Source: Amycolatopsis sp. GM8
GTDB lineage: Bacteria; Actinomycetota; Actinomycetes; Mycobacteriales; Pseudonocardiaceae
Assembly (NCBI RefSeq): GCF_021653975.1
Contig: NZ_JAJKFK010000004.1
Coordinates: forward strand, 122,936-186,935
Direction: 5' to 3'
DNA: 64,000 nt
Every line of letters begins with the position of its first letter. Position 1 is the stretch's first letter. Position numbers and translations under genes: made by a program. The notes under the pieces were generated by a model. The model saw only the letters and a program-made list of their open reading frames with translations, searched no databases and was not told the DNA's origin. Of this stretch, positions 82-10,619 are shown piece by piece.

Positions 82-1386
82 TCAGGTCAGGTCGCGGCCC
101 TTTGTTTCCGGTGTGAGCAGGGTCGTGACCACGCCGATGGCGACGAGGACGACCATGTACAGCGCGAAGACCCACTGCAGGTGCTTGCTGCTCAGGTAGG
201 TCAGCAGGTACGGCGCGGTGCCGCCGAAGATCGCGACGATGAACGAGTACGGCACACCGATCCCGGACGCACGGACCGCGGTCGGGAACAACTCGGCGAA
301 GTAGGCCGGCATGATCCCGACGAACGCACCCAGGAACAGCAGCGCGATCACCATGATCAGCGCGAGCCGCACCGTGGAGCCGGTGATGCCCAGCAGCAGC
401 GGGAACGACAGCAGCAGGAAGGCCACACCGTAGGTCAGGAACACCGGCTTGCGGCCGAACCTGTCGGAGATCTTGCCCCACATGGGCAGCGTGGCCATGA
501 AAACGAGGTTGGCGAACACGGTGACCCACAGCGCGTGTGAGGCGGGGATTCCGCGGCTGCTTATCGCGTACGTGGAGATACCGATGGCCCAGGTGTAATA
601 GACGACCGTGCTCGCGAGGCTGAAACCGAGGATCCGGAACAGGCTGGCGCGGTTGGCGGCCAGGCCGCGCAACAGGTCGCGTGTGGACCGGCGGGTGCTC
701 GCGTTTTCGTTGTAGGCGTCGGTTTCGGGCAGGGTGCGCCGCAGGTACAGCCCCATCAGGCCGAGCAGGCCGCCGATGAGGAACGGGATCCGCCACGCCC
801 AGTCCTTCACGGTCTGGGCGCCGAGCACGCTGCTCGACCCCGCGCCGATCAGCGAGGCCAGCACGATCCCGGCGGTCACCGAGACGTACAGGCTGCTCGA
901 CCACAAGCCGCGCCGGGCGCGCGGGGCGATCTCGGCGATATAGGTGTAGGAGGCGGCGATCTCCCCGCCGTGCGCCAATCCCTGGGCGAGCCGGGCGACC
1001 ACGAGGATGACGGTGGCGCCCAAGCCGATCTGGCTGTGGGTGGGGGAAATGCCGATCACGAGACTGCCGGCGGCCATCAGCAGCATCGACGTGGTCATGG
1101 AGAAGCGGCGCCCGCGGCGGTCGGCGAGCCAGCCGAACACGAAACCACCGATGGGGCGCATGATGAATCCCACGGCGAACACGGCCAAAGTGGACAGTAG
1201 GGCGCTGGTGGCGCTGCCGCCGACGAAGAACTTGGCGGCGAAGAACGGGGCGAAGAGGGCGTAGACACTCCAGTCGTACCACTCCAGTGCGTTGCCCACG
1301 CCCGCGCCGGCCAGCGTCCGGAAGCGGTGCTCCGAAGGCGCTCCGGCGGTGGTGCCGGACGTTGAATTCTGGCTGGGAGCCGACAT
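82..1386 (-). CDS. MFS transporter, metabolite:H+ symporter (MHS) type
   Basis: A 434-residue, 12-helix major facilitator of the inner membrane, probably a proton-coupled importer of an organic acid or similar small metabolite. The first helix carries the MHS-type signature GNALEWYDW (about residues 31-39), and the loop between helices 2 and 3 carries GWLADRRGRR. The C-terminus ends PETKGRDL, usual for the family. The ATG at 1386 follows AAGGAGG with 4 bases spacing. It is the last gene of the reverse run that starts at 6606, so it probably imports the substrate or exports the product of the molybdenum hydroxylase / diketone hydrolase module. Family is clear; substrate is inference. Confidence 0.9.
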   Translation of the reverse strand: MSAPSQNSTSGTTAGAPSEHRFRTLAGAGVGNALEWYDWSVYALFAPFFAAKFFVGGSATSALLSTLAVFAVGFIMRPIGGFVFGWLADRRGRRFSMTTSMLLMAAGSLVIGISPTHSQIGLGATVILVVARLAQGLAHGGEIAASYTYIAEIAPRARRGLWSSSLYVSVTAGIVLASLIGAGSSSVLGAQTVKDWAWRIPFLIGGLLGLMGLYLRRTLPETDAYNENASTRRSTRDLLRGLAANRASLFRILGFSLASTVVYYTWAIGISTYAISSRGIPASHALWVTVFANLVFMATLPMWGKISDRFGRKPVFLTYGVAFLLLSFPLLLGITGSTVRLALIMVIALLFLGAFVGIMPAYFAELFPTAVRASGIGVPYSFIVAIFGGTAPYLLTYLSSKHLQWVFALYMVVLVAIGVVTTLLTPETKGRDLT

Positions 1387-1455
1387 TGGCCCTCCTTGGG
1401 GTAGGGATTGCCGACCGCGACGGAAGTCGTGGCGGCCTGAGAAAGGGGCGAAGAG

Positions 1456-1947
1456 TCAGCCGGCGGTCTCGCGCATCAGCCGGCTCGCGCGGCGGACGCC
1501 ACGCACGAAGTTCTCGTAACCCGTGCAGCGGCACAGGTTTCCACTCAGCGCGTCGCGGATCTGCGCGTCGGTGGGGTCGGGGGTGTGTTCGAGGAGCGTG
1601 ATGGCGGCGAAGGTCATGCCGGGTAGGCAGAACCCGCACTGGAACGAGTAGCACTCGAGAAACGCTCGTTGCACCGGATGTGGGTGGTCCGGTGTCCCGA
1701 TGCTTTCCAAGGTCTGGACATCCGCGCCGTGGATCCGGCCGGGAAGCTGCAGACAGGTCTTGACGCTGCGCCCGTCGACGAGGGCCGTGCAGGTTCCACA
1801 GTCACCGTTGCGGCACCCGGCTCGCACGCCGGTCACACCGAATTCCTCGCGGAGTACGTCGACGACCGTGGCGTCGGCGTCGACGGTGGCACTGACCTCC
1901 TTACCGTTCAACACAAGCGTGAGGGGCAGCTCGGGTAGCTCTGTCAT
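1456..1947 (-). CDS. Molybdenum hydroxylase, [2Fe-2S] small subunit (CoxS/XdhC-type)
   Basis: A 163-residue iron-sulfur subunit of a xanthine-oxidase-family enzyme, passing electrons from the Mo site to FAD. The N-terminal plant-type ferredoxin cluster is visible as CRNGDCGTC with a further Cys about 20 residues on. The C-terminal helical domain carries the second cluster motifs CGFC and CRC (in GNLCRCTGY). The ATG at 1947 overlaps the stop of the FAD subunit as ATGA, so the two are translationally coupled; an in-frame extension to 2190 lies inside the FAD gene and is not used. Length is normal for the family. Confidence 0.93.
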   Translation of the reverse strand: MTELPELPLTLVLNGKEVSATVDADATVVDVLREEFGVTGVRAGCRNGDCGTCTALVDGRSVKTCLQLPGRIHGADVQTLESIGTPDHPHPVQRAFLECYSFQCGFCLPGMTFAAITLLEHTPDPTDAQIRDALSGNLCRCTGYENFVRGVRRASRLMRETAG

Positions 1948-2771
1948 GGCTGGTCTCCTCGCGCTGCCAGTGCCTGCCGGACCGCCCGGCAGGCGATCTC
2001 TCCCGCGACCCGCGCCCGGTAACGGGCGTCGGCACGCAGGTCGGACCATCGCCGTTCGGTGGGGATTGCGGAAATCCGCTCGGCGACGGTGTGCTCGGTC
2101 CGGTTCGTCTCGGGGAGCGTGATTCGCAGCGGCACGTCCGCCACTCCGCCGATGGTCACCTCGGCCGAACCGGCCGGTGGGAGCACACACGCCGCCGTGA
2201 CCACCGGCCAGGACGACTCGGCGAACTTGAGCTTGTAGTACCCCGTAGTCCAGCCGGGAGGCGTACTGGGCACGGCGATCTCAGTGAGAAACTCGCCGCG
2301 CCGGAGGTCGGCACGTTCGGCGCCGAGGAAGAACTCGTCGACCGGAACTCGCCTGGTCCCGGCGGGCGACCGGAGCAGCATTTCGGCTCGCATCGCGACG
2401 AGCACGGCGGGGACGTCGGAGTTGGGGCGTGCCGCGCAGGCGGAGCCGCCCACGGTGCCCTGGTGGCGGATCTGGATGCCGCCGGTGATCCCGGATGCCA
2501 TCCGGTGCGGCATCGGCAGCCGTTCGGCGACCAGCGCCGACGTGATGAGCTGCTGGTAGCTGACCATCGCGCCGAGCCGGATCACCGTGCCGTCCGGCAC
2601 GATCTCGTCGAGGCCGAGCCTGCCGAGATCGACCACATGCGCGGTGTTCAGCTCGCCCCGGGTGAGTGCCGGCACGGTGAGGGTGCCGCCGCCGACGATC
2701 ACCGCGTCGGTCTGGAGGAGACCGGCGGCTTCGTCCGCCGTTGTGGGGTAGGCGACGTGGAAGCGTTTCAT
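1944..2771 (-). CDS. Molybdenum hydroxylase, FAD-binding medium subunit (CoxM-type)
   Basis: A 275-residue flavin subunit that receives electrons from the [2Fe-2S] subunit. The two FAD-binding stretches of the family are present: GGGTLTVPAL (about residues 27-36) and GTVGGSACAARPNSD (about residues 105-119). Its ATG overlaps the stop of the large subunit by four bases and its own stop overlaps the small-subunit start, giving gene order L-M-S. Family assignment is firm; the physiological electron acceptor cannot be read from sequence. Confidence 0.93.
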   Translation of the reverse strand: MKRFHVAYPTTADEAAGLLQTDAVIVGGGTLTVPALTRGELNTAHVVDLGRLGLDEIVPDGTVIRLGAMVSYQQLITSALVAERLPMPHRMASGITGGIQIRHQGTVGGSACAARPNSDVPAVLVAMRAEMLLRSPAGTRRVPVDEFFLGAERADLRRGEFLTEIAVPSTPPGWTTGYYKLKFAESSWPVVTAACVLPPAGSAEVTIGGVADVPLRITLPETNRTEHTVAERISAIPTERRWSDLRADARYRARVAGEIACRAVRQALAARGDQP

Positions 2772-4972
2772 GGCTGCCTCCCTCGGGTTTCGAGGAGGTC
2801 GAGCACTGTGGGCGGGGTCAACGGGACCGTTGTCACGGCGGCACCCTGCCCTGCCAGGGCGTCGTCCACGGCGTTCGCCACCGCCGCCATCGCACCGCCG
2901 ACACCGGCCTCACCGGCGCCCTTCGCGCCCAGGAGTGTTCCCGGCGCCGGGGTCTCATGGTGTTCGATGGTGAAGGAGGGCAGGTCGTTGGCGCGGGGGA
3001 TCAGGTACTCCTTGAACGAGCTGGTGCGCAAGGCGCCGTCGGCGCCGAACTGGCTCGACTCCGACACCGCGAGTCCGATACCCATCGCGATCGCGCCCTG
3101 CAACTGTCCTTCGACGAGCACCTCGTCGATGACGCGGCCGCAGTCGTGAACCGCGGTGAGTCCCAGCACCCGCACCACACCCGTGGCCGGGTCCACGCTG
3201 ACCCGGGCGACATAGGCGCCACTGGAGAAGTAGGGGTAGCTGTGCCGATAGGCGACTGTCTCTTGTGGACTCCGCAACGTTTCCGGCCGGTAGGTCCGGG
3301 TGCAGGAAAGGGCTTCCGTCCGTTCGGCGCCTTCCGTTTCGCGCAGCTTCTGGGCGAGGTCCCGGGCCGCGAGGACAACGGCCGCGCCGCCCACCGCGGT
3401 ACCACGGCTGCTGGCGTTGCCGGTGCCTGGCGGGCAGAGGTCCGTGTCGCCCTGGATCACCGTGACCCGGCCGCGATCGACACCCAATTCGGCAGCCGCG
3501 AGACGGGCAAGGCTGGTTTCGTTGCCACCGCCCGGATTCGTGACGCTACTCAGGACCACCACGCGCCCGTCGGGCTCGATGCGGACGGTGGCCGCCTCCG
3601 GCACGGCGGCGGTCGGTTGCCGACCATTTAACGGGCCGGACGCGTGGCCGCCGCCTTCAGGGGTGACCTCGACCGCGATCCCGAGCCCGTGCAGCAGGCC
3701 GTCCTCGCTGGGACTGACGATGCTCGCTCGCTGCTGCTCGTAGTCCGCCGCGTGCAGGACTTTTGTTAGCAGGGCTGGAAAATCGCCACTGTCCACAAGG
3801 TACCCGGACGGCATGCGGTGCGGTAAGGACTCGGTCGTCAGCAGGTTGCGGCGCCGTACCTCGGCGGGATCGAGGCCGACGTGGCGTGCCACCAGGTCCA
3901 TCGTGCGCTCCATGACCAGCACGGCGGTTTCTTTGCCGTAGCCGCGGCAGGACTGCCAGGGCGGCTGGTGGGTGGCGAGCACCCGGGAGCGGATTTCGAC
4001 GTTGGGCACGGCGTAGGCGGTCGGCAGCGTGGCCGCCGTGACGTAGGCCTGCCGCCAGCCCGGGGTGGCGCCCTCGGCGCCGACCGGGATCGTGATGTCG
4101 TCGCGGAACACCACGACCTGTCCGTCCGCGTCGAATCCGGCCCGCACGTGGTGGACCTGCTCACGCGCGCCGCCCAGCATGGTTTCCGCGCGGGTTTCGA
4201 TCCACTTGACCGGACGTCGGCACAGCAGGCTCATCAGGCACACCAGCGGTTCCTCGGGCTGCCCGGCCATCTTGATCCCGAAGGCGCCGCCGACCGGCGG
4301 GACGACGACGCGGATCGCGGTCTCCGGCATGCCGAGCACCTCGGCCAGTGTGGCGCGCAGCGCGAACGGCTGTTGGTGCGACGCGTGCACCGTCAGCTTG
4401 TGCGTGTCCTCGTCCCACGACGCGAGGTAGCCACGGGGTTCCAGCGGCGCACCGGTGCTGCGCGCGATCGGGAACGTGACTTCGAGCTCGTGCGGTGCCG
4501 AGGCGAACGCGGCTTCCGGATCGCCGGCCCGGAAATGGTTCTCGGCAAGGACTTCCGGCTCGTCGTCGGGCAGATCCCGGTAGTCGCCCGACACCGCCGC
4601 CGCGCCGGCACGAGCCGCCCGTGGACTCTCCGCCACCACGACCGCGATGGGTTCCCCCGGGTAGTGCACTTGGTCGACGGCCACGGCAAACGGATGTCCG
4701 CGCCGGGCGCCGATGAGTTCCGGATCGCCCATCGCGTACGGGATCGGCTTCAGATGCGTCGAAGCTTCCCGGCCGTCCAGCACGCGCACCACACCCGCCA
4801 CGCGCTCCGCCTCCGCCGTGTTCACCTTGGCGAGCCGGGCATGAGCGCGGGTGCTGCGGGCAACAGCCATGTGCAGCAGACCGTCCGGGCGCAGATCGTC
4901 CACAAAGGACGCCGTGCCGCCCGCGTAGGCGAACCCGTCGGTCTTGGGCCAGGGCTGGGTGGTGCCGGACAT
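2768..4972 (-). CDS. Molybdenum hydroxylase, molybdopterin large subunit (CoxL/XdhB-type)
   Basis: A 734-residue catalytic subunit. The Mo-cofactor motif GGAFGIKM and the family's active-site Glu motif GAKGAGEAGVGG are both present, so the enzyme should be catalytic. The CO-dehydrogenase active-site Cys loop (AYRCSFR) is not present, so this is not a CO dehydrogenase. The ATG at 4972 follows GAGGAG with 5 bases spacing. The neighbouring diketone hydrolase and cyclase suggest a cyclic ketone, enone or heterocycle as substrate. A related three-subunit Mo enzyme hydrating 2-cyclohexenone is known from Alicycliphilus; whether this one hydroxylates or hydrates is open. Confidence 0.92.
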   Translation of the reverse strand: MSGTTQPWPKTDGFAYAGGTASFVDDLRPDGLLHMAVARSTRAHARLAKVNTAEAERVAGVVRVLDGREASTHLKPIPYAMGDPELIGARRGHPFAVAVDQVHYPGEPIAVVVAESPRAARAGAAAVSGDYRDLPDDEPEVLAENHFRAGDPEAAFASAPHELEVTFPIARSTGAPLEPRGYLASWDEDTHKLTVHASHQQPFALRATLAEVLGMPETAIRVVVPPVGGAFGIKMAGQPEEPLVCLMSLLCRRPVKWIETRAETMLGGAREQVHHVRAGFDADGQVVVFRDDITIPVGAEGATPGWRQAYVTAATLPTAYAVPNVEIRSRVLATHQPPWQSCRGYGKETAVLVMERTMDLVARHVGLDPAEVRRRNLLTTESLPHRMPSGYLVDSGDFPALLTKVLHAADYEQQRASIVSPSEDGLLHGLGIAVEVTPEGGGHASGPLNGRQPTAAVPEAATVRIEPDGRVVVLSSVTNPGGGNETSLARLAAAELGVDRGRVTVIQGDTDLCPPGTGNASSRGTAVGGAAVVLAARDLAQKLRETEGAERTEALSCTRTYRPETLRSPQETVAYRHSYPYFSSGAYVARVSVDPATGVVRVLGLTAVHDCGRVIDEVLVEGQLQGAIAMGIGLAVSESSQFGADGALRTSSFKEYLIPRANDLPSFTIEHHETPAPGTLLGAKGAGEAGVGGAMAAVANAVDDALAGQGAAVTTVPLTPPTVLDLLETRGRQP

Positions 4973-5008
4973 CTGTACTCCTCGTCGAGCCAGGAAAACG
5001 CGGGAAGG

Positions 5009-5815
5009 TCAGCTCGTCTTCATCCGCGCCATCCCTTCCAGCGCCAGGCCGTAGCCGAGCAGGCCGTGGAGGCGCTGGCGGAGGTCCTCGGTGAGCACGG
5101 TGCGCGTGTACCGGCGGACGAGGCGTGGCTGGAGGATGAGCACGCGGGCGAGTTCCCGGGCCCGTTCCAGCACGTCACCGGCGGGCAGGACCTCGTTCAC
5201 CAGCCCGATCGTCTGCGCTTCCGCCGCGGTGAGCTTTTGCCCGGTCAACAGGAAGTAGCGGCCGCGGTTCGCGCCCATCAGCAGCGGCATCACGATGTGC
5301 ATGCCGTCGCCGGGCACCATCCCGCCGGGAAAATGGGCCGTGTCCTGGAAGTAGGTGTCCTCGGAGGCCAGCACGATGTCGGACACGAGCGGGATTTCCG
5401 CGTGCCGCACCGCGGGGCCGTTGATGGCGGCGATGACCGGGGCTTCGATCGACAGCAGGTTGGGCAGCAGGTGCTTGCCTTCCCACTGGATCGGGTCGTA
5501 GTGCTCCGGCGTCATCGTGTTGCGGTTCGGGTGCCGGCCCGGCTCGATCGCGGGTCCGCTGAACTGGTCGCCCGTGCCGGTCAGGATGATCACGTCGTTC
5601 TCGCGGTCGCGGCCGACCTGCAGGAAGGCGTCCTCGAGTTCGTTGTGCGCCAGCAGGCTCCAGTGCAGCGGGCCGTTCTCGGTGTGGAACCGCATCTCCA
5701 GGATGCCGTCCTCGCGCGTCATCTCGATCGTCTCGTACCGGTCGCGGTACTGGTCGAACGCCGACGGCGCGCGGACGAGGTCGGTCATGCTGCGGGCTTC
5801 GGTTCCGCTGGTCAC
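5009..5815 (-). CDS. Beta-diketone hydrolase, 6-oxocamphor hydrolase-like (crotonase fold)
   Basis: A 268-residue crotonase-superfamily protein that by recall resembles Rhodococcus 6-oxocamphor hydrolase, which cleaves a C-C bond in cyclic 1,3-diketones by a retro-Claisen reaction without CoA. Counting from the GTG, counterparts of its catalytic residues are visible: Trp52 and His57 (HWSLLAH), His138 (AVRHAEIP), His161 and Asp170 (AHFPGGMVPGD). The usual enoyl-CoA hydratase Glu pair is absent. The GTG at 5815 overlaps the upstream stop (GTGA) and has GGAG 8 bases before it; the ATG at 5788 (MTDLV) also fits the known N-terminus. It sits between the cyclase and the molybdenum hydroxylase. The subfamily is well supported; the substrate is not known. 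Confidence 0.8.
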   Translation of the reverse strand: MTSGTEARSMTDLVRAPSAFDQYRDRYETIEMTREDGILEMRFHTENGPLHWSLLAHNELEDAFLQVGRDRENDVIILTGTGDQFSGPAIEPGRHPNRNTMTPEHYDPIQWEGKHLLPNLLSIEAPVIAAINGPAVRHAEIPLVSDIVLASEDTYFQDTAHFPGGMVPGDGMHIVMPLLMGANRGRYFLLTGQKLTAAEAQTIGLVNEVLPAGDVLERARELARVLILQPRLVRRYTRTVLTEDLRQRLHGLLGYGLALEGMARMKTS

Positions 5816-6606
5816 TGGTCGTGCTCCGTTTCGTTGTCGTCGAAAATGGCCACCGCACGGGTCCAGCCCGCGGACGCGGCGTGGATCTTGACCGGGAAAC
5901 AGGCGACGGTGAAGCCGTGCGCGGGCAGCTGGTCGAGGTAACGCAGCTTCTCGATCTGGCAGTACTCGGTCTTGCGGCCCGCCTTGTGGCCTTCCCAGAT
6001 GATCGAGGCGTCGCGATCCCGCGCGTAGCGCTCGGCCACGTAGCTGAACGGCGCGTCCCAGCTCCACGCGTCGGTGCCCACCACCCGAACGCCCTGGTCG
6101 CACAGGTACAGCGTCGCTTCCCGGCCCATACCGCAGCCGCTCTGCGCGTACTCCTGGGTACCGAACCGGGCGCCTGCCGAGGTGTTGACGACCACGATGT
6201 CCAGCGGCCGCAACGTGTACTCGATGCGCTTGAGTTCCTGCTCGATATCGCTCGCGGTGACGATGTAGCCGTCGTCGAAATGGCGGAAGTCCAGCTTCAC
6301 GCCCGGGTTGAGAAACCAGTTCAGCGGCATCTCGTCGATCGTGCGTGGCCGGGAGCCATCCTCCATCATCGAGGAGTAATGCCAGGGAGCGTCCACATGG
6401 GTCCCGTTGTGGGTGGACAGATGGACGGTTTCCAGCGCGAACGCTTCGCTGTTGGGCAGTTCCTCCGGCCGCAGGCCCTCGTAGCGGCGCTGCAGCATCG
6501 GGACCGTGTCCTGATGGCTGGTGTACTCGATCTGGAACTCGTAACCCGGGGGATCGGCCGGAACGCCGTTCTCCAGGTTCATCGAAATATCGAGGAATCG
6601 TGGCAT
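5812..6606 (-). CDS. Cyclase-family metal-dependent hydrolase
   Basis: A 264-residue protein of the cyclase / kynurenine-formamidase-like family, metal-dependent hydrolases of amides, lactones and some C-C bonds. The metal motif HxGTHxDxPxH is present as HNGTHVDAPWH (around residues 66-76). It is the first gene of the operon running to 82, and its start lies about 70 bases from the LacI-type palindromes at 6675-6694. A ring-opening or lactone/diketone hydrolysis role next to the oxocamphor-hydrolase-like enzyme is plausible. Tryptophan catabolism is not supported, as no other kynurenine gene is near. Confidence 0.85.
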   Translation of the reverse strand: MPRFLDISMNLENGVPADPPGYEFQIEYTSHQDTVPMLQRRYEGLRPEELPNSEAFALETVHLSTHNGTHVDAPWHYSSMMEDGSRPRTIDEMPLNWFLNPGVKLDFRHFDDGYIVTASDIEQELKRIEYTLRPLDIVVVNTSAGARFGTQEYAQSGCGMGREATLYLCDQGVRVVGTDAWSWDAPFSYVAERYARDRDASIIWEGHKAGRKTEYCQIEKLRYLDQLPAHGFTVACFPVKIHAASAGWTRAVAIFDDNETEHDQ

Positions 6607-6674
6607 GGCCGCAGTTCATTCCAATCATGCGACAGGCTGGTGAACTCCGACGCTAAGCACTCCGCGATACCGGG

Positions 6675-6694
6675 TCAAACGTTTGATATCAAAT
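6675..6694. promoter_or_regulatory. Two overlapping palindromes, likely LacI-type operator
   Basis: TCAAACGTTTGA (6675-6686) is a perfect 12-bp palindrome with the central CG typical of LacI/GalR operators. It overlaps a second perfect palindrome, TTTGATATCAAA (6683-6694). On the reverse strand a TTTGAC -35-like element lies within the first palindrome, so a bound repressor would block transcription of the cyclase operon. The LacI-family gene ends at 6689 right beside it. Confidence 0.65.
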
Positions 6695-7705
6695 CCGCGC
6701 TGGTCCTGCGGTCGAATCCCGGGCGATCAGCTCGGGCGGGTCCGGCACGACGACCCGCCGCGCGGCGCCGCCGGCGGTCAGCACCAGCGCGAGTTCGACC
6801 GCTTCCGCGCCGAGGCGTTTCGTGGGCATGGACACCGTGGTGAGGCGTGGTGTCAGGTAGTCGGCCAACTGGTCATTGTGGACGGACAACACGGAGATCT
6901 CCCCGGGCACCGCGATGTTTTCGCTGCGTGCCGCGGCCAGCGCGCCGACGCCCATCGGGAAGGTGCCGGCCACCAGTGCCGTGGGGCGCTGCGTCGAGCG
7001 CAGGACACGCAACGCGCCCTCGTAGCCCGCCGCGTAGTCCCGGTCGGGCATTTCCACGGTGGTCGCGCGCACGTCGAGCCGCTGCGCGGCGCGCACGAAC
7101 CCGCGTTCGCGGCGGACCATCGTGTCCAGTGTGCGGGGACCGAAGATGCCGCAGATCGACCGGTGACCGAGCGCGGCCAGGTGCTCCACCGCACACGCCG
7201 TGGCGTCGCCGTCACGCAGCACGACGCTGGCGGAGACGCCGCGCACCTGACGGTTGACCAGGACGACGGACCGCGGCAGCTGCCCGGCGAGCCGGCGCAG
7301 GGCGGCGTCCTCGATCTGCCCGGAGGCCACGAGCATGGCGTCGACCCGGCCGTGCATGACCATGTCCGTGATGGTCTCGTGCGGGTCGCCGGCAGCATGG
7401 GTGCCGAGCACGAGTCCGTAGCCGTGTTGTTTCGCCTGCTCCTCGACGCCCTGCGCGATCGAGGAGTACACCGGGCTGGAGAATCCGGGCAACAGCAGGC
7501 CGAGCGTCATCGTGCGGGAACTGCGCAGTCCGCGCGCCGACGCGTCGGCGCGATACCCCACTTCGTCGGCGGCGCGGAGGATCCGCGCCCGCGTGTCCTT
7601 CGAGGCGAAGCCGCGTGGATCGTCCCGCAGCACCCGCGAGACGAGGCTGAAGTGCACACCCGCCGCGTCTGCCACGTCACGTAGCGTCGGACGCCGCTGT
7701 CCCAT
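6689..7705 (-). CDS. LacI-family transcriptional regulator
   Basis: A 338-residue repressor. The N-terminal helix-turn-helix reads TLRDVADAAGVHFSLVSRVL (from about residue 7) and is followed by a hinge and a periplasmic-binding-protein-like effector domain. The ATG at 7705 has GGAGGG 8 bases upstream. It lies upstream and on the same strand as the cyclase, diketone hydrolase, molybdenum hydroxylase and MFS genes, and the palindromes at its 3' end are its most likely target. The effector is probably the pathway substrate or a ring-opened product (inference). Confidence 0.93.
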   Translation of the reverse strand: MGQRRPTLRDVADAAGVHFSLVSRVLRDDPRGFASKDTRARILRAADEVGYRADASARGLRSSRTMTLGLLLPGFSSPVYSSIAQGVEEQAKQHGYGLVLGTHAAGDPHETITDMVMHGRVDAMLVASGQIEDAALRRLAGQLPRSVVLVNRQVRGVSASVVLRDGDATACAVEHLAALGHRSICGIFGPRTLDTMVRRERGFVRAAQRLDVRATTVEMPDRDYAAGYEGALRVLRSTQRPTALVAGTFPMGVGALAAARSENIAVPGEISVLSVHNDQLADYLTPRLTTVSMPTKRLGAEAVELALVLTAGGAARRVVVPDPPELIARDSTAGPARI

Positions 7706-7768
7706 GCCGTTTTCCCTCCGCTGTCGAACCCGCCGGTCCTACTGTCGCACTTCGCCGTGCGACCGCGC

Positions 7769-8695
7769 TCAGGCGACGCGGAGTACGATCTTGCCCCTGG
7801 TGCGGCCGGAGTCGATGAGGCTGTGCGCTTCCTGAACGTCGTCGAGGTCGAAGGCCTTCGTGACGACGGGCCGGATCGCTCCGCTGTCGACCAGTTCGGC
7901 GATCTCGGCGAGGCGCGGTCCGTTGGAGTCCAGGATGAAGGTCTCCGCCGTGATTCCGAGCTGGCGCGCCTTGTCCGCGTCCGGTGCGCCCGCGACCGTG
8001 ACGAGGGTCCCGCTCGGGACGACGACGTCGTAGGACCGTTCGAGCGTGTCGCCGCCCACAGTGTCCAGCACGACGTCGGCGAAGCGGCCGCGGGCGGTGA
8101 AGTCCTCGTTCCGGTAGTCGATGACTTCGTCGGCTCCGAGCGACTTGGCCAGGTCGATCCCGTCGCCCGAGGCGGTCGCGACCACATGGGCCCCGCGGTG
8201 CTTCGCGAGCTGGACGGCCGCCGAGCCGACCCCGCCCGCGGCGGCGTGGATCAGGGCGGTTCCGCCCGGCTTCAGCTCGCCGATCTCGAAGAGTGCCTTC
8301 CACGCGGTCAGTGTGACCAGGGGGAGGCTGGCGGCTTGCTCGAGCGTGATGCTGCGCGGTGCCTTGGCGATCTCGCCGGGGTCGACGGCGACGTACTCGG
8401 AGTACGTGCCGTCCCGGTCGAGTGCCGGGCGGCCGTACACCACGTCGCCGAGGGAGAGCGAGGTGTCAGACGTGCCGAGGTCGACGACGGTGCCCGCGAA
8501 GTCCCAGCCGAGAATCCACGGGAACGGCCGCTCGGAGAACTTGAAAATTCCTTCGCGCACAAGGGAATCGACGGGGTTGACGGCTGCGGTGTGCACGCGG
8601 ATGAGTACGTCGTTGGCGCCGAGCGAGGGCAGGGGAGTGGACTCCACCTTGAGCACCGAGCCGTCACCGTGCTGGTGGATGCGAACTGCTTTCAT
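7769..8695 (-). CDS. NADPH:quinone reductase-like oxidoreductase (zinc-free MDR)
   Basis: A 308-residue zinc-independent medium-chain reductase. The N-terminal GroES-like domain shows AAVNPVDSLVREG and the Rossmann motif is AAAGGVGSAAVQLAK (about residues 148-162). No catalytic or structural zinc ligands are present. Such enzymes reduce quinones or activated enones with NADPH. The ATG at 8695 matches the usual start MKAVRIHQHG; longer in-frame starts reach into the intergenic control region. It is divergent from the aldo/keto reductase at 8856, and the shared gap holds a copy of the XRE-type operator. Confidence 0.9.
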   Translation of the reverse strand: MKAVRIHQHGDGSVLKVESTPLPSLGANDVLIRVHTAAVNPVDSLVREGIFKFSERPFPWILGWDFAGTVVDLGTSDTSLSLGDVVYGRPALDRDGTYSEYVAVDPGEIAKAPRSITLEQAASLPLVTLTAWKALFEIGELKPGGTALIHAAAGGVGSAAVQLAKHRGAHVVATASGDGIDLAKSLGADEVIDYRNEDFTARGRFADVVLDTVGGDTLERSYDVVVPSGTLVTVAGAPDADKARQLGITAETFILDSNGPRLAEIAELVDSGAIRPVVTKAFDLDDVQEAHSLIDSGRTRGKIVLRVA

Positions 8696-8768
8696 GACAG
8701 AGTCTTCGTTCCTTTGCGTGTGGGTAGCCGTCGTCAGCGACATTAGGTCGATGCGGACGGACGAGCAT

Positions 8769-8783
8769 GGGTGTGTCGCACCC
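8769..8783. promoter_or_regulatory. GGGTG-N5-CACCC operator, copy 1
   Basis: Inverted repeat GGGTGTGTCGCACCC in the gap between the divergent quinone reductase and aldo/keto reductase genes; with the flanking T and A the arms are 6 bp. It matches 13 of 15 positions of the repeat at 10647-10661 ahead of the XRE regulator gene. The XRE protein encoded at 9756 is the obvious candidate to bind both. Confidence 0.65.
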
Positions 8784-8855
8784 ACTTTCGCGCGCGGAAA
8801 AGGCGGAATCATCGTGATAGGAACGTGTTGACAGCACGCGGAAGGGGTGACCATT

Positions 8856-9752
8856 GTGGACGAACTGGCGAACCGCACCGGGGTTTTCGAGATTGCGGGC
8901 AAGAAGGTGCCGAGGCTGGGATTCGGGGCCATGCGCTTGACCGGTCGCGGGATCTGGGGTGAGCCCGCCGACCGCGCGGAGTGTGTCGCGGTCGTGCGCC
9001 GGGCCGTCGAACGCGGTGTCCGGTTCATCGACACTGCCGACTCCTACGGACCGTACGTGGCCGAGGAAATCATTCGCGAAGCGATTCATCCGTACCCGGA
9101 CGAGGTCGTGATCGCGACGAAAGCCGGTCTGACCCGCAACGGGCCGGATGTGATCGATACGCCGGACGGACCGAAGCGGCTCGGGCCGGCGGCGTGGCCG
9201 CCCGTGGGCCGGCCGGAGTACCTGCGCCAGCAAGCACTGATGAGCCTGCGCCGGCTCGGACTGGAACAGATCGATCTCTTCCAGTTGCACCGCGTCGATC
9301 CCCAGGTGCCACTGGCCGACCAGGTCGGTGAGCTGGCGAAACTGCGGGAGGAAGGCAAAATCGCGGCCATCGGGCTCTCGGAGGTCAGCGTCGCGCAGCT
9401 CGCCGAAGCGCGCGCCATCACCGACATCGCGACGGTTCAGAATCGGTACAACGTGGTGGAACGCAAGTCCCGGGACCTGTTGGACGTGTGCGAGCGCGAC
9501 GGCATCGGGTTCATCCCGTGGGCACCGGTGGCGCAGGGCGGCCTGGACGGGGCGGCGGGCGTGCTGGCGGACGTCGCGCGGGAACACGAAGCCACGGTGG
9601 CGCAGGTAGCCATCGCGTGGCTGCTGGCGAGTTCGCCCGTGATGATGCCGATCCCGGGCACCTCGCGGCGCACGCACCTGGACGAAAACCTCGCCGCTGC
9701 GGACATCCGGTTGTCGGATGACGATCTCGCTCGGCTGACGGCCGCCGCCTGA
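8856..9752 (+). CDS. Aldo/keto reductase
   Basis: A 298-residue NADPH-dependent (beta/alpha)8 reductase. The catalytic tetrad is present: Asp and Tyr in DTADSYG, Lys in IATKAG and His in QLHRVD. It reduces aldehydes or ketones to alcohols; substrate unknown. The GTG at 8856 is 8 bases from the AAGGGG ribosome site, whereas the GTG at 8847 overlaps that site and is less likely. Its stop lies 3 bases from the stop of the convergent XRE gene, and it probably belongs to that regulator's regulon through the operator at 8769. Confidence 0.92.
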   Translation: MDELANRTGVFEIAGKKVPRLGFGAMRLTGRGIWGEPADRAECVAVVRRAVERGVRFIDTADSYGPYVAEEIIREAIHPYPDEVVIATKAGLTRNGPDVIDTPDGPKRLGPAAWPPVGRPEYLRQQALMSLRRLGLEQIDLFQLHRVDPQVPLADQVGELAKLREEGKIAAIGLSEVSVAQLAEARAITDIATVQNRYNVVERKSRDLLDVCERDGIGFIPWAPVAQGGLDGAAGVLADVAREHEATVAQVAIAWLLASSPVMMPIPGTSRRTHLDENLAAADIRLSDDDLARLTAAA

Positions 9753-9755
9753 CGG

Positions 9756-10619
9756 TCAGGACCGGCGATCGTCCACTGTGGATTCTTCCTGCGCCGCCTC
9801 GGCGGCGAGGCGGCGCAGGAGAACGAACGCGTCCTCGGCCGCACTGCCGGGCTCGGCGGTGTACACGGAGAGGTGCTGGCCGGGCGCGCTGGTCACGGCC
9901 AGCGCTTCGAAGTGCACGGACAGCTCGCCGACCCGCGGATGGCGGAACCGCTTGTCCTCGTGGGTGCGGGGACGCACTTCGTACCGCGCCCACAGGGTCG
10001 CGAACACCGGGCTGTGCGCGCTGATCTCACCGAGCACCGCCTCGATCCGCCGGTCACCGGGGAACCGCGCGGCTGACGCGCGCAGGTTGTTCACCGCGAT
10101 CTCGGCCGCTTTGTCCCAGTCGGCGTAGAACCGCCGTGCGAACGGATCCAGGAAGATCATCCGCAGCAGGTTGTCGAACCGGGCGAAACCGGAGTACAGC
10201 GCTTCGGCCATGGCGTTGGCCGCCAGCACGTCCTGCGCGGACCCGACCACGAACGCCGGCACGTCGCGCATCCCGTTCATCAGCGTGACAAGGTCGCGGC
10301 TCACCTCGGTGACCGGCGCCGCCGTCGCACCGGGCACGGGCATGCCCAACCGGAACAGGTGGGCGGCCGCCGCTTCGTCCAGGCGCAGCGCCCGCGCGAT
10401 CGCCGACAGCACCTGCTCGGACGGATGCCGTTCCCGGCCCTGTTCCAGGCGGACGTAGTAGTCGGTGCTGACACCGGCCAGCAGCGCCACCTCGTCACGG
10501 CGGAGTCCCGGCACCCGCCGCGCGCCGTCGTCGGGTAGCCCCGCCACAGCCGGCGTCACCGCGTCACGACGTGCCCTGAGGTAGTCGCCGAACTCGTTAC
10601 CACTCTCCACGGTTACCAC
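9756..10619 (-). CDS. XRE-family regulator with MmyB-type ligand domain
   Basis: A 287-residue regulator. The N-terminal helix-turn-helix contains RRDEVALLAGVSTDYYVRLE (about residues 39-58) and the C-terminal two thirds match the MmyB-like, PAS-type ligand domain common in actinomycetes, where such proteins often control an adjacent oxidoreductase. It is convergent with the aldo/keto reductase gene. The palindrome at 10647-10661, 28 bases ahead of its start, and its near-identical copy at 8769 suggest autoregulation plus control of the reductase pair. Confidence 0.93.
   Translation of the reverse strand: MVTVESGNEFGDYLRARRDAVTPAVAGLPDDGARRVPGLRRDEVALLAGVSTDYYVRLEQGRERHPSEQVLSAIARALRLDEAAAAHLFRLGMPVPGATAAPVTEVSRDLVTLMNGMRDVPAFVVGSAQDVLAANAMAEALYSGFARFDNLLRMIFLDPFARRFYADWDKAAEIAVNNLRASAARFPGDRRIEAVLGEISAHSPVFATLWARYEVRPRTHEDKRFRHPRVGELSVHFEALAVTSAPGQHLSVYTAEPGSAAEDAFVLLRRLAAEAAQEESTVDDRRS

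What the first reader, a model, noticed from the sequence alone, without database searches (positions are those of the whole stretch)
82..7705. LacI-controlled cyclic-diketone module: Mo hydroxylase, oxocamphor-hydrolase-like enzyme and cyclase
One reverse operon combines a complete xanthine-oxidase-type Mo enzyme, a crotonase that keeps the Trp/His/His/His/Asp set of 6-oxocamphor hydrolase, a cyclase-family hydrolase and an importer. Known precedent: in Alicycliphilus a three-subunit Mo enzyme hydrates 2-cyclohexenone and oxidises it to a 1,3-dione, which is then cleaved. The inference is an actinobacterial route in which a cyclic enone or ketone is converted to a cyclic 1,3-diketone and opened by retro-Claisen cleavage. 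I know of no description of this gene set together.
Basis: partly seen in the sequence, partly recalled or inferred. Interest (0 to 1): 0.78.

Follow-up and report, generated by a model that had tools for sequence, protein, structure and literature searches.

The report
Conserved molybdenum-enzyme and diketone-hydrolase operon
A soil-type actinobacterium carries an uncharacterised operon, apparently spread between distant bacteria partly on plasmids, that seems to oxidise a small ring compound with a molybdenum enzyme, open the ring with water, and then cut a carbon-carbon bond with a camphor-hydrolase-like enzyme; what it eats is unknown.

Summary
In detail: LacI, PF04199 cyclase, crotonase, Mo/FAD/FeS subunits and MFS importer on the minus strand. 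The crotonase is clearly of the CoA-independent beta-diketone hydrolase type (241 bits to 6-oxocamphor hydrolase, 231 to Alr4455, 68 to the best enoyl-CoA hydratase; W40/H45/H122/H145/D154/E244 kept), but in a clade apart from the camphor enzyme. The Mo trimer accompanies 18 of 19 clade-A loci and none of 49 others examined. The seven-gene order recurs in 6 genomes; one exact operator, TATCAAACGWTTGAC, sits at the operon promoter in 5 of 5 carrier genomes searched.

New facts: the hydrolase beside the crotonase is interchangeable (cyclase 13, metallo-beta-lactamase 2, SMP-30 3, unreadable 1). An enone-reductase-like gene outside the given coordinates is linked to actinobacterial copies. Streptomyces and Xanthobacter copies lie beside 3-oxoacid CoA-transferase and thiolase genes.

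The diketone-hydrolase and co-occurrence claims are supported. A carbocyclic enone substrate is not; the hydration half of its Alicycliphilus precedent was later questioned by the same group, though Mo-dependent oxidation of the cyclic hydroxyketone stands. I favour Mo oxidation, lactone-type ring opening, then retro-Claisen cleavage.

The parts
82..1386 (-). MFS importer, metabolite:H+ symporter-like, last gene of the operon
   Evidence: PF07690/PF00083; best NCBIfam TIGR00883 metabolite/H+ symporter 341 bits, below its cut-off 443; 70-76% identical relatives at the same place in L027, L028, L081, L096, L097
1456..1947 (-). [2Fe-2S] subunit of the molybdenum enzyme
   Evidence: Fer2 + Fer2_2; relative beside the Mo gene in 18 of 19 clade-A loci
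1944..2771 (-). FAD subunit of the molybdenum enzyme
   Evidence: FAD_binding_5; relative beside the Mo gene in 18 of 19 clade-A loci
2768..4972 (-). molybdopterin (xanthine-oxidase family) subunit, 734 aa, with two in-frame gaps relative to most relatives
   Evidence: Ald_Xan_dh_C, MoCoBD_1, MoCoBD_2; E688 in the motif GAKGAGEAG invariant in 10 aligned rows (that this is the catalytic Glu is recalled); gaps of about 16 and 37 residues
5009..5788 (-). crotonase-fold beta-diketone hydrolase type (6-oxocamphor-hydrolase-like)
   Evidence: 241 bits to 1o8u, 231 to 2j5g, next enoyl-CoA hydratase 68; W40 H45 H122 H145 D154 E244 kept; clade A, support 100/99. Start at ATG 5788 is my choice; not tested
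5812..6606 (-). cyclase-family (PF04199) metal-dependent hydrolase
   Evidence: PF04199 125 bits; HNGTHVDAPWH in window, HNGTH and DAP invariant in the 18 rows; nearest solved relatives isatin hydrolase A, only 27 bits
6674..6688 (-). LacI-type operator TATCAAACGTTTGAC (core palindrome TCAAACGTTTGA at 6675-6686), overlapping a -35-like TTGACC with TAGCGT 17 bases on
   Evidence: same sequence, T or A at one base, before the first enzyme gene in 8 loci of two gene arrangements; one exact site in each of 5 carrier genomes, reversed-pattern control 0; one palindromic site in the window. The promoter scan called nothing there
6689..7705 (-). LacI-family regulator, presumed repressor
   Evidence: PF00356 + PF13377; 64-70% relatives beside the operon in L027, L028, L031, L035, L081, L096, L097
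7769..8695 (-). quinone/enone-reductase-like MDR oxidoreductase (QOR), outside the given coordinates, linked to actinobacterial copies of the module
   Evidence: at E<=1e-90 in 3 of 150 family genomes, own and two others, all three carriers of the operon; best match beside the operon in 4 of 5 carrier genomes, none in G907; in 5 of 8 readable actinobacterial module loci and in none of 10 proteobacterial ones
8847..9752 (+). aldo/keto reductase, possible accessory gene
   Evidence: PF00248; 69%, 76%, 83%, 56% relatives near the operon in L027, L028, L096, L097, but the family is common: 22 of 150 family genomes at E<=1e-95

Best explanation
A catabolic module under one LacI-type operator that appears to move between phyla. 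An importer takes up a small ring compound, probably polar or anionic (inferred). The three-subunit Mo hydroxylase oxidises it (inferred) to a ring that contains a lactone or another hydrolysable 1,3-dicarbonyl, for example by hydroxylating a carbon next to a ring oxygen. A metal-dependent hydrolase (cyclase here; metallo-beta-lactamase fold or SMP-30 in relatives) opens the ring with water (inferred). The beta-diketone hydrolase then cuts the resulting 1,3-diketone by retro-Claisen hydrolysis without CoA (inferred from family and intact active-site residues). The acids released enter central metabolism, in some hosts perhaps through 3-oxoacid CoA-transferase and a thiolase. Shown by sequence: gene content, conserved linkage, conserved operator sequence, intact residues. 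Not shown: substrate, order of steps, repressor binding, any activity.
For: Crotonase family, active-site set and clade. Mo trimer beside 18 of 19 clade-A loci and in 0 of 49 other crotonase loci, 32 of which have at least 4 kb on both sides. Full seven-gene order in window, L027, L028, L081, L096, L097. One of three unrelated hydrolase families beside the crotonase in 18 of 18 readable clade-A loci: cyclase 13, MBL 2, SMP-30 3; none has two, by tblastn at E<=1e-10 with one to two representatives of each. Of the 49 other loci, two hold an SMP-30 relative (L038, L040) and two an MBL relative (L085, L101). 3-oxoacid CoA-transferase genes plus thiolase in L031, L035, L036 (the L035 thiolase only by similarity clustering); the L036 thiolase passes the PcaF cut-off, 673 against 597 bits. 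Operator. Analogous order of steps, Mo oxidation then lactonase then beta-keto-acid cleavage, in deoxyribose breakdown (PMC6365646, passages).
Against: PF04199 members can break C-C bonds of cyclic 1,3-diones (dihydrophloroglucinol cyclohydrolase, PMC10470551), so the cyclase need not be a lactonase. The L031 thiolase is below the PcaF cut-off (443 against 597), and the window operon has no CoA-transferase or thiolase. The Mo subunits of actinobacterial and proteobacterial modules are only 38-40% identical, and a wider tree leaves them unresolved against two further Mo enzymes, so a common substrate across phyla is not assured. One clade-A locus (L082) has no Mo trimer but an aldehyde dehydrogenase in the stretch read; no Mo gene is listed in the first 12 kb past the record start, and that plasmid is not among the 5 records matched by the window's Mo subunit at E<=1e-60. 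The linked reductase is absent from the 10 proteobacterial copies.
Confidence: 0.47

Rival explanations
1. One reading: the Mo enzyme converts a cyclic enone, hydroxyketone or ketone to a carbocyclic 1,3-diketone, which the crotonase and/or the cyclase opens by retro-Claisen hydrolysis.
For: Crotonase belongs with 6-oxocamphor and Anabaena beta-diketone hydrolases; a cyclase-family enzyme opens the cyclic 1,3-dione dihydrophloroglucinol (PMC10470551); the Alicycliphilus Mo enzyme is still regarded by its authors as a dehydrogenase of cyclic alcohols that gives 1,3-cyclohexanedione (PMC4052635); an enone-reductase-like gene is linked to actinobacterial copies.
Against: The hydratase half of that precedent is doubted; two hydrolases are not needed for a simple cyclic 1,3-dione; the hydrolase slot is filled by SMP-30 or metallo-beta-lactamase-fold proteins elsewhere.
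Confidence: 0.23
2. The Mo enzyme is an aldehyde or lactol dehydrogenase for a sugar-like or aldehyde substrate, the second hydrolase is a lactonase, and the crotonase cleaves a diketo acid further on.
For: Best NCBIfam model for the Mo subunit is glyceraldehyde dehydrogenase alpha, 425 bits but below its cut-off 790; an aldehyde dehydrogenase stands next to cyclase and crotonase in L082; LacI regulators often sense sugars (recalled); deoxyribose precedent.
Against: No sugar kinase, isomerase or SDR among the window's operon genes; the deoxyribose enzyme is an IorAB-like two-subunit enzyme with a cytochrome c in its operon, unlike this FAD-containing trimer; beta-diketones are not usual sugar intermediates (recalled).
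Confidence: 0.15
3. N-heterocycle route: Mo hydroxylation next to ring nitrogen gives a lactam, the cyclase hydrolyses it as isatin hydrolase does, deamination gives a 1,3-diketone that the crotonase cleaves.
For: Nearest solved cyclase relatives are isatin hydrolases, 27 bits; a RidA-family gene follows the Mo genes in L083; nearest solved relative of the L084 Mo subunit is quinoline 2-oxidoreductase, 352 bits.
Against: SMP-30 enzymes in the hydrolase slot are not known lactamases (recalled); no deaminase or RidA among the window's operon genes or the genes listed around L081; not looked for in the other actinobacterial copies.
Confidence: 0.12
4. The genes are an ordinary enoyl-CoA hydratase and unrelated neighbours with no joint pathway.
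For: Record annotation calls the crotonase an enoyl-CoA hydratase/isomerase family protein.
Against: Score gap 241 to 68 bits, conserved linkage and one operator per genome.
Confidence: 0.03

Closest known systems
6-oxocamphor hydrolase (PDB 1o8u)
   Same: Crotonase fold, 241 bits, same W/H/H/H/D/E set.
   Different: Falls outside clade A, with L012 and the Rhodococcus plasmid gene L086, which has P450, ferredoxin, SDR and AMP-binding genes within 7 kb; the window has a Mo enzyme and no P450 among the ten proteins scanned.
Anabaena beta-diketone hydrolase Alr4455 (PDB 2j5g/2j5s)
   Same: 231 bits; described as a CoA-independent crotonase in the title of its structure paper, seen in the reference list of PMC3584854.
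   Different: Phe instead of Trp40; outside clade A.
Alicycliphilus denitrificans MhyADH (Mo/FAD/FeS enzyme of cyclohexanol breakdown)
   Same: Three subunits with molybdopterin, FAD, [2Fe-2S]; oxidises 3-hydroxycyclohexanone to a 1,3-dione (PMC4052635, passages).
   Different: Sequence not compared; hydratase activity doubted by the same group.
Dihydrophloroglucinol cyclohydrolase DPGC (Clostridium scatologenes)
   Same: Cyclase family, Mn-dependent hydrolase, retro-Claisen opening of a cyclic 1,3-dione (PMC10470551, passages).
   Different: [quoted passage not shown] no Mo enzyme and no crotonase named in the passages seen.
Oxidative deoxyribose pathway (Pseudomonas simiae)
   Same: Mo dehydrogenase, then lactonase, then beta-keto-acid cleavage, MFS transporters (PMC6365646, passages).
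   Different: Mo enzyme is an IorAB-like pair with a cytochrome c; cleavage by an acetyl-CoA-using beta-keto acid cleavage enzyme.

Membership tests
CoA-independent beta-diketone hydrolases of the crotonase superfamily (OCH/ABDH) | Sequence closer to OCH/ABDH than to enoyl-CoA hydratases of known structure | tested here: met
   241 and 231 bits against 68 bits for the best enoyl-CoA hydratase
CoA-independent beta-diketone hydrolases of the crotonase superfamily (OCH/ABDH) | Active-site residues W40 (F in ABDH), H45, H122, H145, D154, E244 | tested here: met
   WHHHDE in window; the OCH residue list is recalled and from the finding; ABDH's catalytic H43, H144, D153, E243 are named in PMC3584854
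CoA-independent beta-diketone hydrolases of the crotonase superfamily (OCH/ABDH) | Hydrolysis of a 1,3-diketone without CoA | not testable with these tools
   needs an assay
6-oxocamphor hydrolase of camphor breakdown (orthologue) | Groups with 1o8u in a tree | tested here: not met
   1o8u lies with L086, L012, L099 (98/83), outside clade A (100/99)
6-oxocamphor hydrolase of camphor breakdown (orthologue) | Camphor-type neighbours (P450, ferredoxin) | tested here: not met
   none among the ten proteins of window 82-10619
Xanthine-oxidase-family molybdenum hydroxylases, three-subunit | Mo, FAD and [2Fe-2S] subunits with their domains and the conserved Glu | tested here: met
Xanthine-oxidase-family molybdenum hydroxylases, three-subunit | Assignment of the Mo subunit to a named enzyme model | tested here: not met
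   all 13 NCBIfam models matched lie below their cut-offs, best 425 of 790
PF04199 cyclase / DPGC-like cyclohydrolases | PF04199 match and HxGTHxDxPxH metal motif | tested here: met
   (that the motif binds metal is recalled)
PF04199 cyclase / DPGC-like cyclohydrolases | DPGC's substrate residues Trp20/Tyr22 | not tested
   DPGC sequence not held; structure prediction switched off
Cyclohexenone-type Mo enzyme (MhyADH) | Sequence relation, and hydration of enones or oxidation of cyclic alcohols | not tested
   sequence not compared; hydration itself doubted

The most novel reading that the evidence does not exclude
A transferable catabolic 'cassette' in which a Mo hydroxylase builds a lactone or 1,3-dicarbonyl in a small ring, an exchangeable metal hydrolase (cyclase, metallo-beta-lactamase fold or SMP-30) opens it, and a dedicated CoA-independent retro-Claisen hydrolase finishes it: an undescribed general route for O-heterocycles such as 4-pyrones or furanones in actinobacteria and proteobacteria.
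Probability: 0.35. Interest if true: 0.72.

Novelty: new variant of a known kind. Interest (0 to 1): 0.52.

Why it matters
In the plasmid records read here these crotonases are annotated as enoyl-CoA hydratase family proteins, and few of the kind have a known natural job (recalled). Here one clade is tied to a specific Mo enzyme and a second hydrolase across two phyla, partly on plasmids, and in actinobacteria to a regulator with a single exact operator per genome. That makes the question of what these beta-diketone hydrolases do in nature directly testable: four purified parts and one reporter would give inducer, substrate and order of steps.

Tried and rejected
Rejected: the crotonase as a true enoyl-CoA hydratase; orthology with the camphor enzyme; assignment of the Mo subunit to a named NCBIfam enzyme model. 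Considered and not settled: whether proteobacterial and actinobacterial module Mo enzymes form one clade. With 7 own-genome paralogues they do (support 93/92); with three more plasmid rows (L141, L142, L143) the branch is unresolved. The own-genome Mo gene nearest in the tree (L008, in L144) has no relative of the window's cyclase, crotonase or importer nor of the MBL, FAH or SMP-30 proteins beside it by tblastn at E<=1e-5; one ordinary crotonase relative lies 6 kb away. The aldo/keto reductase was too common to count as specific.

Literature: nine term searches listed no paper that describes this gene set; I saw listings only, several of them capped (30 of 463, 15 of 532, 15 of 17, 12 of 23, 12 of 283), and most subscription papers are not held, so absence is weak. 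The riboflavin pathway paper (PMC12746152, abstract and passages) is similar in logic but uses other enzymes. The curcuminoid beta-diketone hydrolase paper (cited in PMC12981152, which I read whole) is not held, so its family is unknown to me. Neighbourhoods of crotonases outside clade A were annotated only in samples: eight proteins from five loci and two plasmid regions.
Full report
WHAT IS THERE. They run LacI, cyclase, crotonase, Mo, FAD, FeS, MFS on the minus strand. The window lies at C17:122936-186935 of an 8.16-Mb genome. Its family is Pseudonocardiaceae by inference: family member G848 has a contig of the same length, 872,512 bases, as the Amycolatopsis eburnea record L027, and G1011's match has the same coordinates as the one on Pseudonocardia plasmid NZ_CP012185.

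THE CROTONASE. Against all solved chains it scores 241 bits with 6-oxocamphor hydrolase and 231 with the Anabaena beta-diketone hydrolase; the best enoyl-CoA hydratase scores 68. On an alignment of 81 rows it has W40, H45, H122, H145, D154 and E244. These residues are common to most rows, so they show family, not substrate. The tree of these 81 rows left out duplicates of fuller loci and rows under 190 residues or 90 bits. In it the window falls in a clade of 18 (support 100/99) that excludes both solved enzymes. The camphor enzyme groups instead with a Rhodococcus plasmid gene, L086, whose neighbours include P450, ferredoxin, SDR and AMP-binding genes. So the protein looks like, but is not an orthologue of, 6-oxocamphor hydrolase.

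LINKAGE. A genome-contig scan with the crotonase returned 55 loci. Plasmid records added more: 36 records matched, and I read the neighbourhoods of 6 plus a second stretch on three of those. Clade A as finally counted holds 19 loci: the 18 tree rows, and a second copy on the P. graminis plasmid (L141), placed by its 69% identity, not by tree. L029 and L030 have identical crotonases and several others are near kin, so the 19 are not all independent. Mo, FAD and FeS genes are present in 18 of 19. The exception, L082 of Paraburkholderia megapolitana, has cyclase, crotonase and an aldehyde dehydrogenase; no Mo gene is listed in the 12 kb beyond the record start (that table is incomplete), and the plasmid is not among the 5 records matched by the window's Mo subunit at E<=1e-60. 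Of 49 loci outside the clade none has the Mo gene at E<=1e-10; 32 of the 49 have at least 4 kb on both sides, 47 were in the tree, and one (L079) is only 28% identical. Loci L012-L025, with about 1.5 kb on each side, were left out of that count, as was L080. The full seven-gene order is in window, L027, L028, L081, L096 and L097. The module is rare: 15 of 397 genomes of the order have a crotonase of this type at E<=1e-30, and only the window's own exceeds 49% identity; 8 of 390 of the family match at E<=1e-70, own, four at 78-81% and three at 49-52%; 2 of 396 of the phylum sample, own and one at 54%. Yet crotonase and cyclase stay 73-79% identical between this actinobacterium and Alphaproteobacteria, and copies sit on plasmids, which suggests transfer between phyla.

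THE EXCHANGEABLE HYDROLASE. Beside the crotonase, 13 clade-A loci have the cyclase, 2 (Streptomyces L031, L035) a metallo-beta-lactamase-fold protein, 3 (Burkholderiales L083, L084, L141) an SMP-30/gluconolactonase; L026 starts at the crotonase and cannot be read. No locus shows two, by tblastn at E<=1e-10. The SMP-30 protein's nearest solved relatives include regucalcin. Three unrelated hydrolase families in one slot suggest one kind of reaction, ring hydrolysis, and lactones are the substrate class I recall as common to SMP-30 and many metallo-beta-lactamase-fold enzymes. Against this, PF04199 also contains an enzyme that opens a cyclic 1,3-dione (PMC10470551). Cyclases 56-62% identical to the window's were read in six of 90 matching plasmid records: near FAH-family hydrolases in L102, L103, L105, beside beta-keto acid cleavage enzymes in L106, L107, with neither in L104. 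On Pseudonocardia plasmid pBCI1-2, about 48 kb from its copy of the operon, a second cluster joins Mo/FAD/FeS with a metallo-beta-lactamase, an FAH-family protein and another crotonase, the last only 29% identical to the window's.

DOWNSTREAM AND ACCESSORY GENES. Streptomyces L031 has two 3-oxoacid CoA-transferase subunits and a thiolase next to the module; L035 has the two subunits, and a thiolase by similarity clustering only; Xanthobacter L036 has a CoA-transferase subunit and a thiolase that passes the 3-oxoadipyl-CoA thiolase cut-off (673 against 597 bits), while the L031 thiolase does not (443). This suggests, but does not prove, a 3-oxo acid product. In L036 a convergent gene that clusters with a TetR regulator lies between these genes and the module. 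In the window the QOR gene at 7769-8695 lies directly upstream of LacI. It was found at E<=1e-90 in 3 of 150 family genomes, own and two others, all module carriers. At E<=1e-60 it is in 4 of 5 carriers, with the best match beside the module each time; G907 has none, and the own genome has a second, 43% match elsewhere. It is near 5 of 8 readable actinobacterial modules (window, L027, L035, L081, L097; not L028, L031, L096) and none of 10 proteobacterial ones, and its place differs between genomes, so the link is not mere synteny. The aldo/keto reductase is less specific.

REGULATION. A 15-base site TATCAAACG(T/A)TTGAC lies before the first enzyme gene in the eight loci that have the LacI gene, in both the co-directional and the divergent arrangement. 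Each of five carrier genomes has exactly one exact copy, at the operon; G907 has one further one-mismatch site; the reversed control pattern gives none. The site overlaps TTGAC(C/G), followed 17-18 bases on by TAGC(T/G)T in 7 of the 8 sequences printed (counted by eye; L028 differs). The promoter scan called nothing there, as that second hexamer is poor. I read it as a repressor covering the -35 region; binding is not shown. The proteobacterial copies L029, L083, L084 and L141 have a TetR-family gene nearby instead.

THE MO ENZYME. All domains and the conserved Glu are present. No NCBIfam model reaches its cut-off. The window protein lacks about 16 and 37 residues present in most relatives; L081 and L097 are also short at the second place. 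Whether the gaps matter is untested because structure prediction was off. Actinobacterial and proteobacterial module Mo subunits are 38-40% identical; their common origin is supported in one tree (93/92) and unresolved in a wider one.

INTERPRETATION. Shown: gene content, linkage, operator sequence, family and intact residues. Inferred: Mo oxidation of a small ring, hydrolytic opening, CoA-free retro-Claisen cleavage. A lactone-type route fits the exchangeable hydrolase better; sugar-like and N-heterocyclic substrates are not excluded. The term searches listed under Tried and rejected showed no description of the gene set. I rate it a new variant of known catabolic operons, with a clear and testable open question.

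Noticed in passing
window 2768-4972: The Mo subunit lacks about 16 and 37 residues in frame relative to most relatives; two Pseudonocardiaceae relatives (L081, L097) are also shortened at the second place.
   Followed up: partly
L141 (NZ_CP024936.1 222000-240000) and L084: Paraburkholderia graminis plasmid pPHS1_P carries two copies of the module with SMP-30 in place of the cyclase.
   Followed up: yes
L142 (NZ_CP012185.1 572000-588000): A second, related cluster on the same Pseudonocardia plasmid: Mo/FAD/FeS with metallo-beta-lactamase, FAH-family protein, another crotonase and MFS genes.
   Followed up: partly
L086 (Rhodococcus sp. 008 plasmid pR8L1): A crotonase that groups with 6-oxocamphor hydrolase lies with P450, ferredoxin, SDR and AMP-binding genes, which looks like a camphor-type pathway.
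   Followed up: no
L081:15205-17281: The QOR-type gene beside the Pseudonocardia operon appears split by an IS630-family transposase.
   Followed up: no
L039:6038-9759: A crotonase outside clade A follows an FMO-like flavoprotein and an iron-type alcohol dehydrogenase, another possible cyclic-ketone context.
   Followed up: no
L102-L107: A widespread cyclase subfamily, 56-62% identical to the window's, lies near FAH-family or beta-keto acid cleavage genes in five of the six plasmid regions read (90 records matched).
   Followed up: partly
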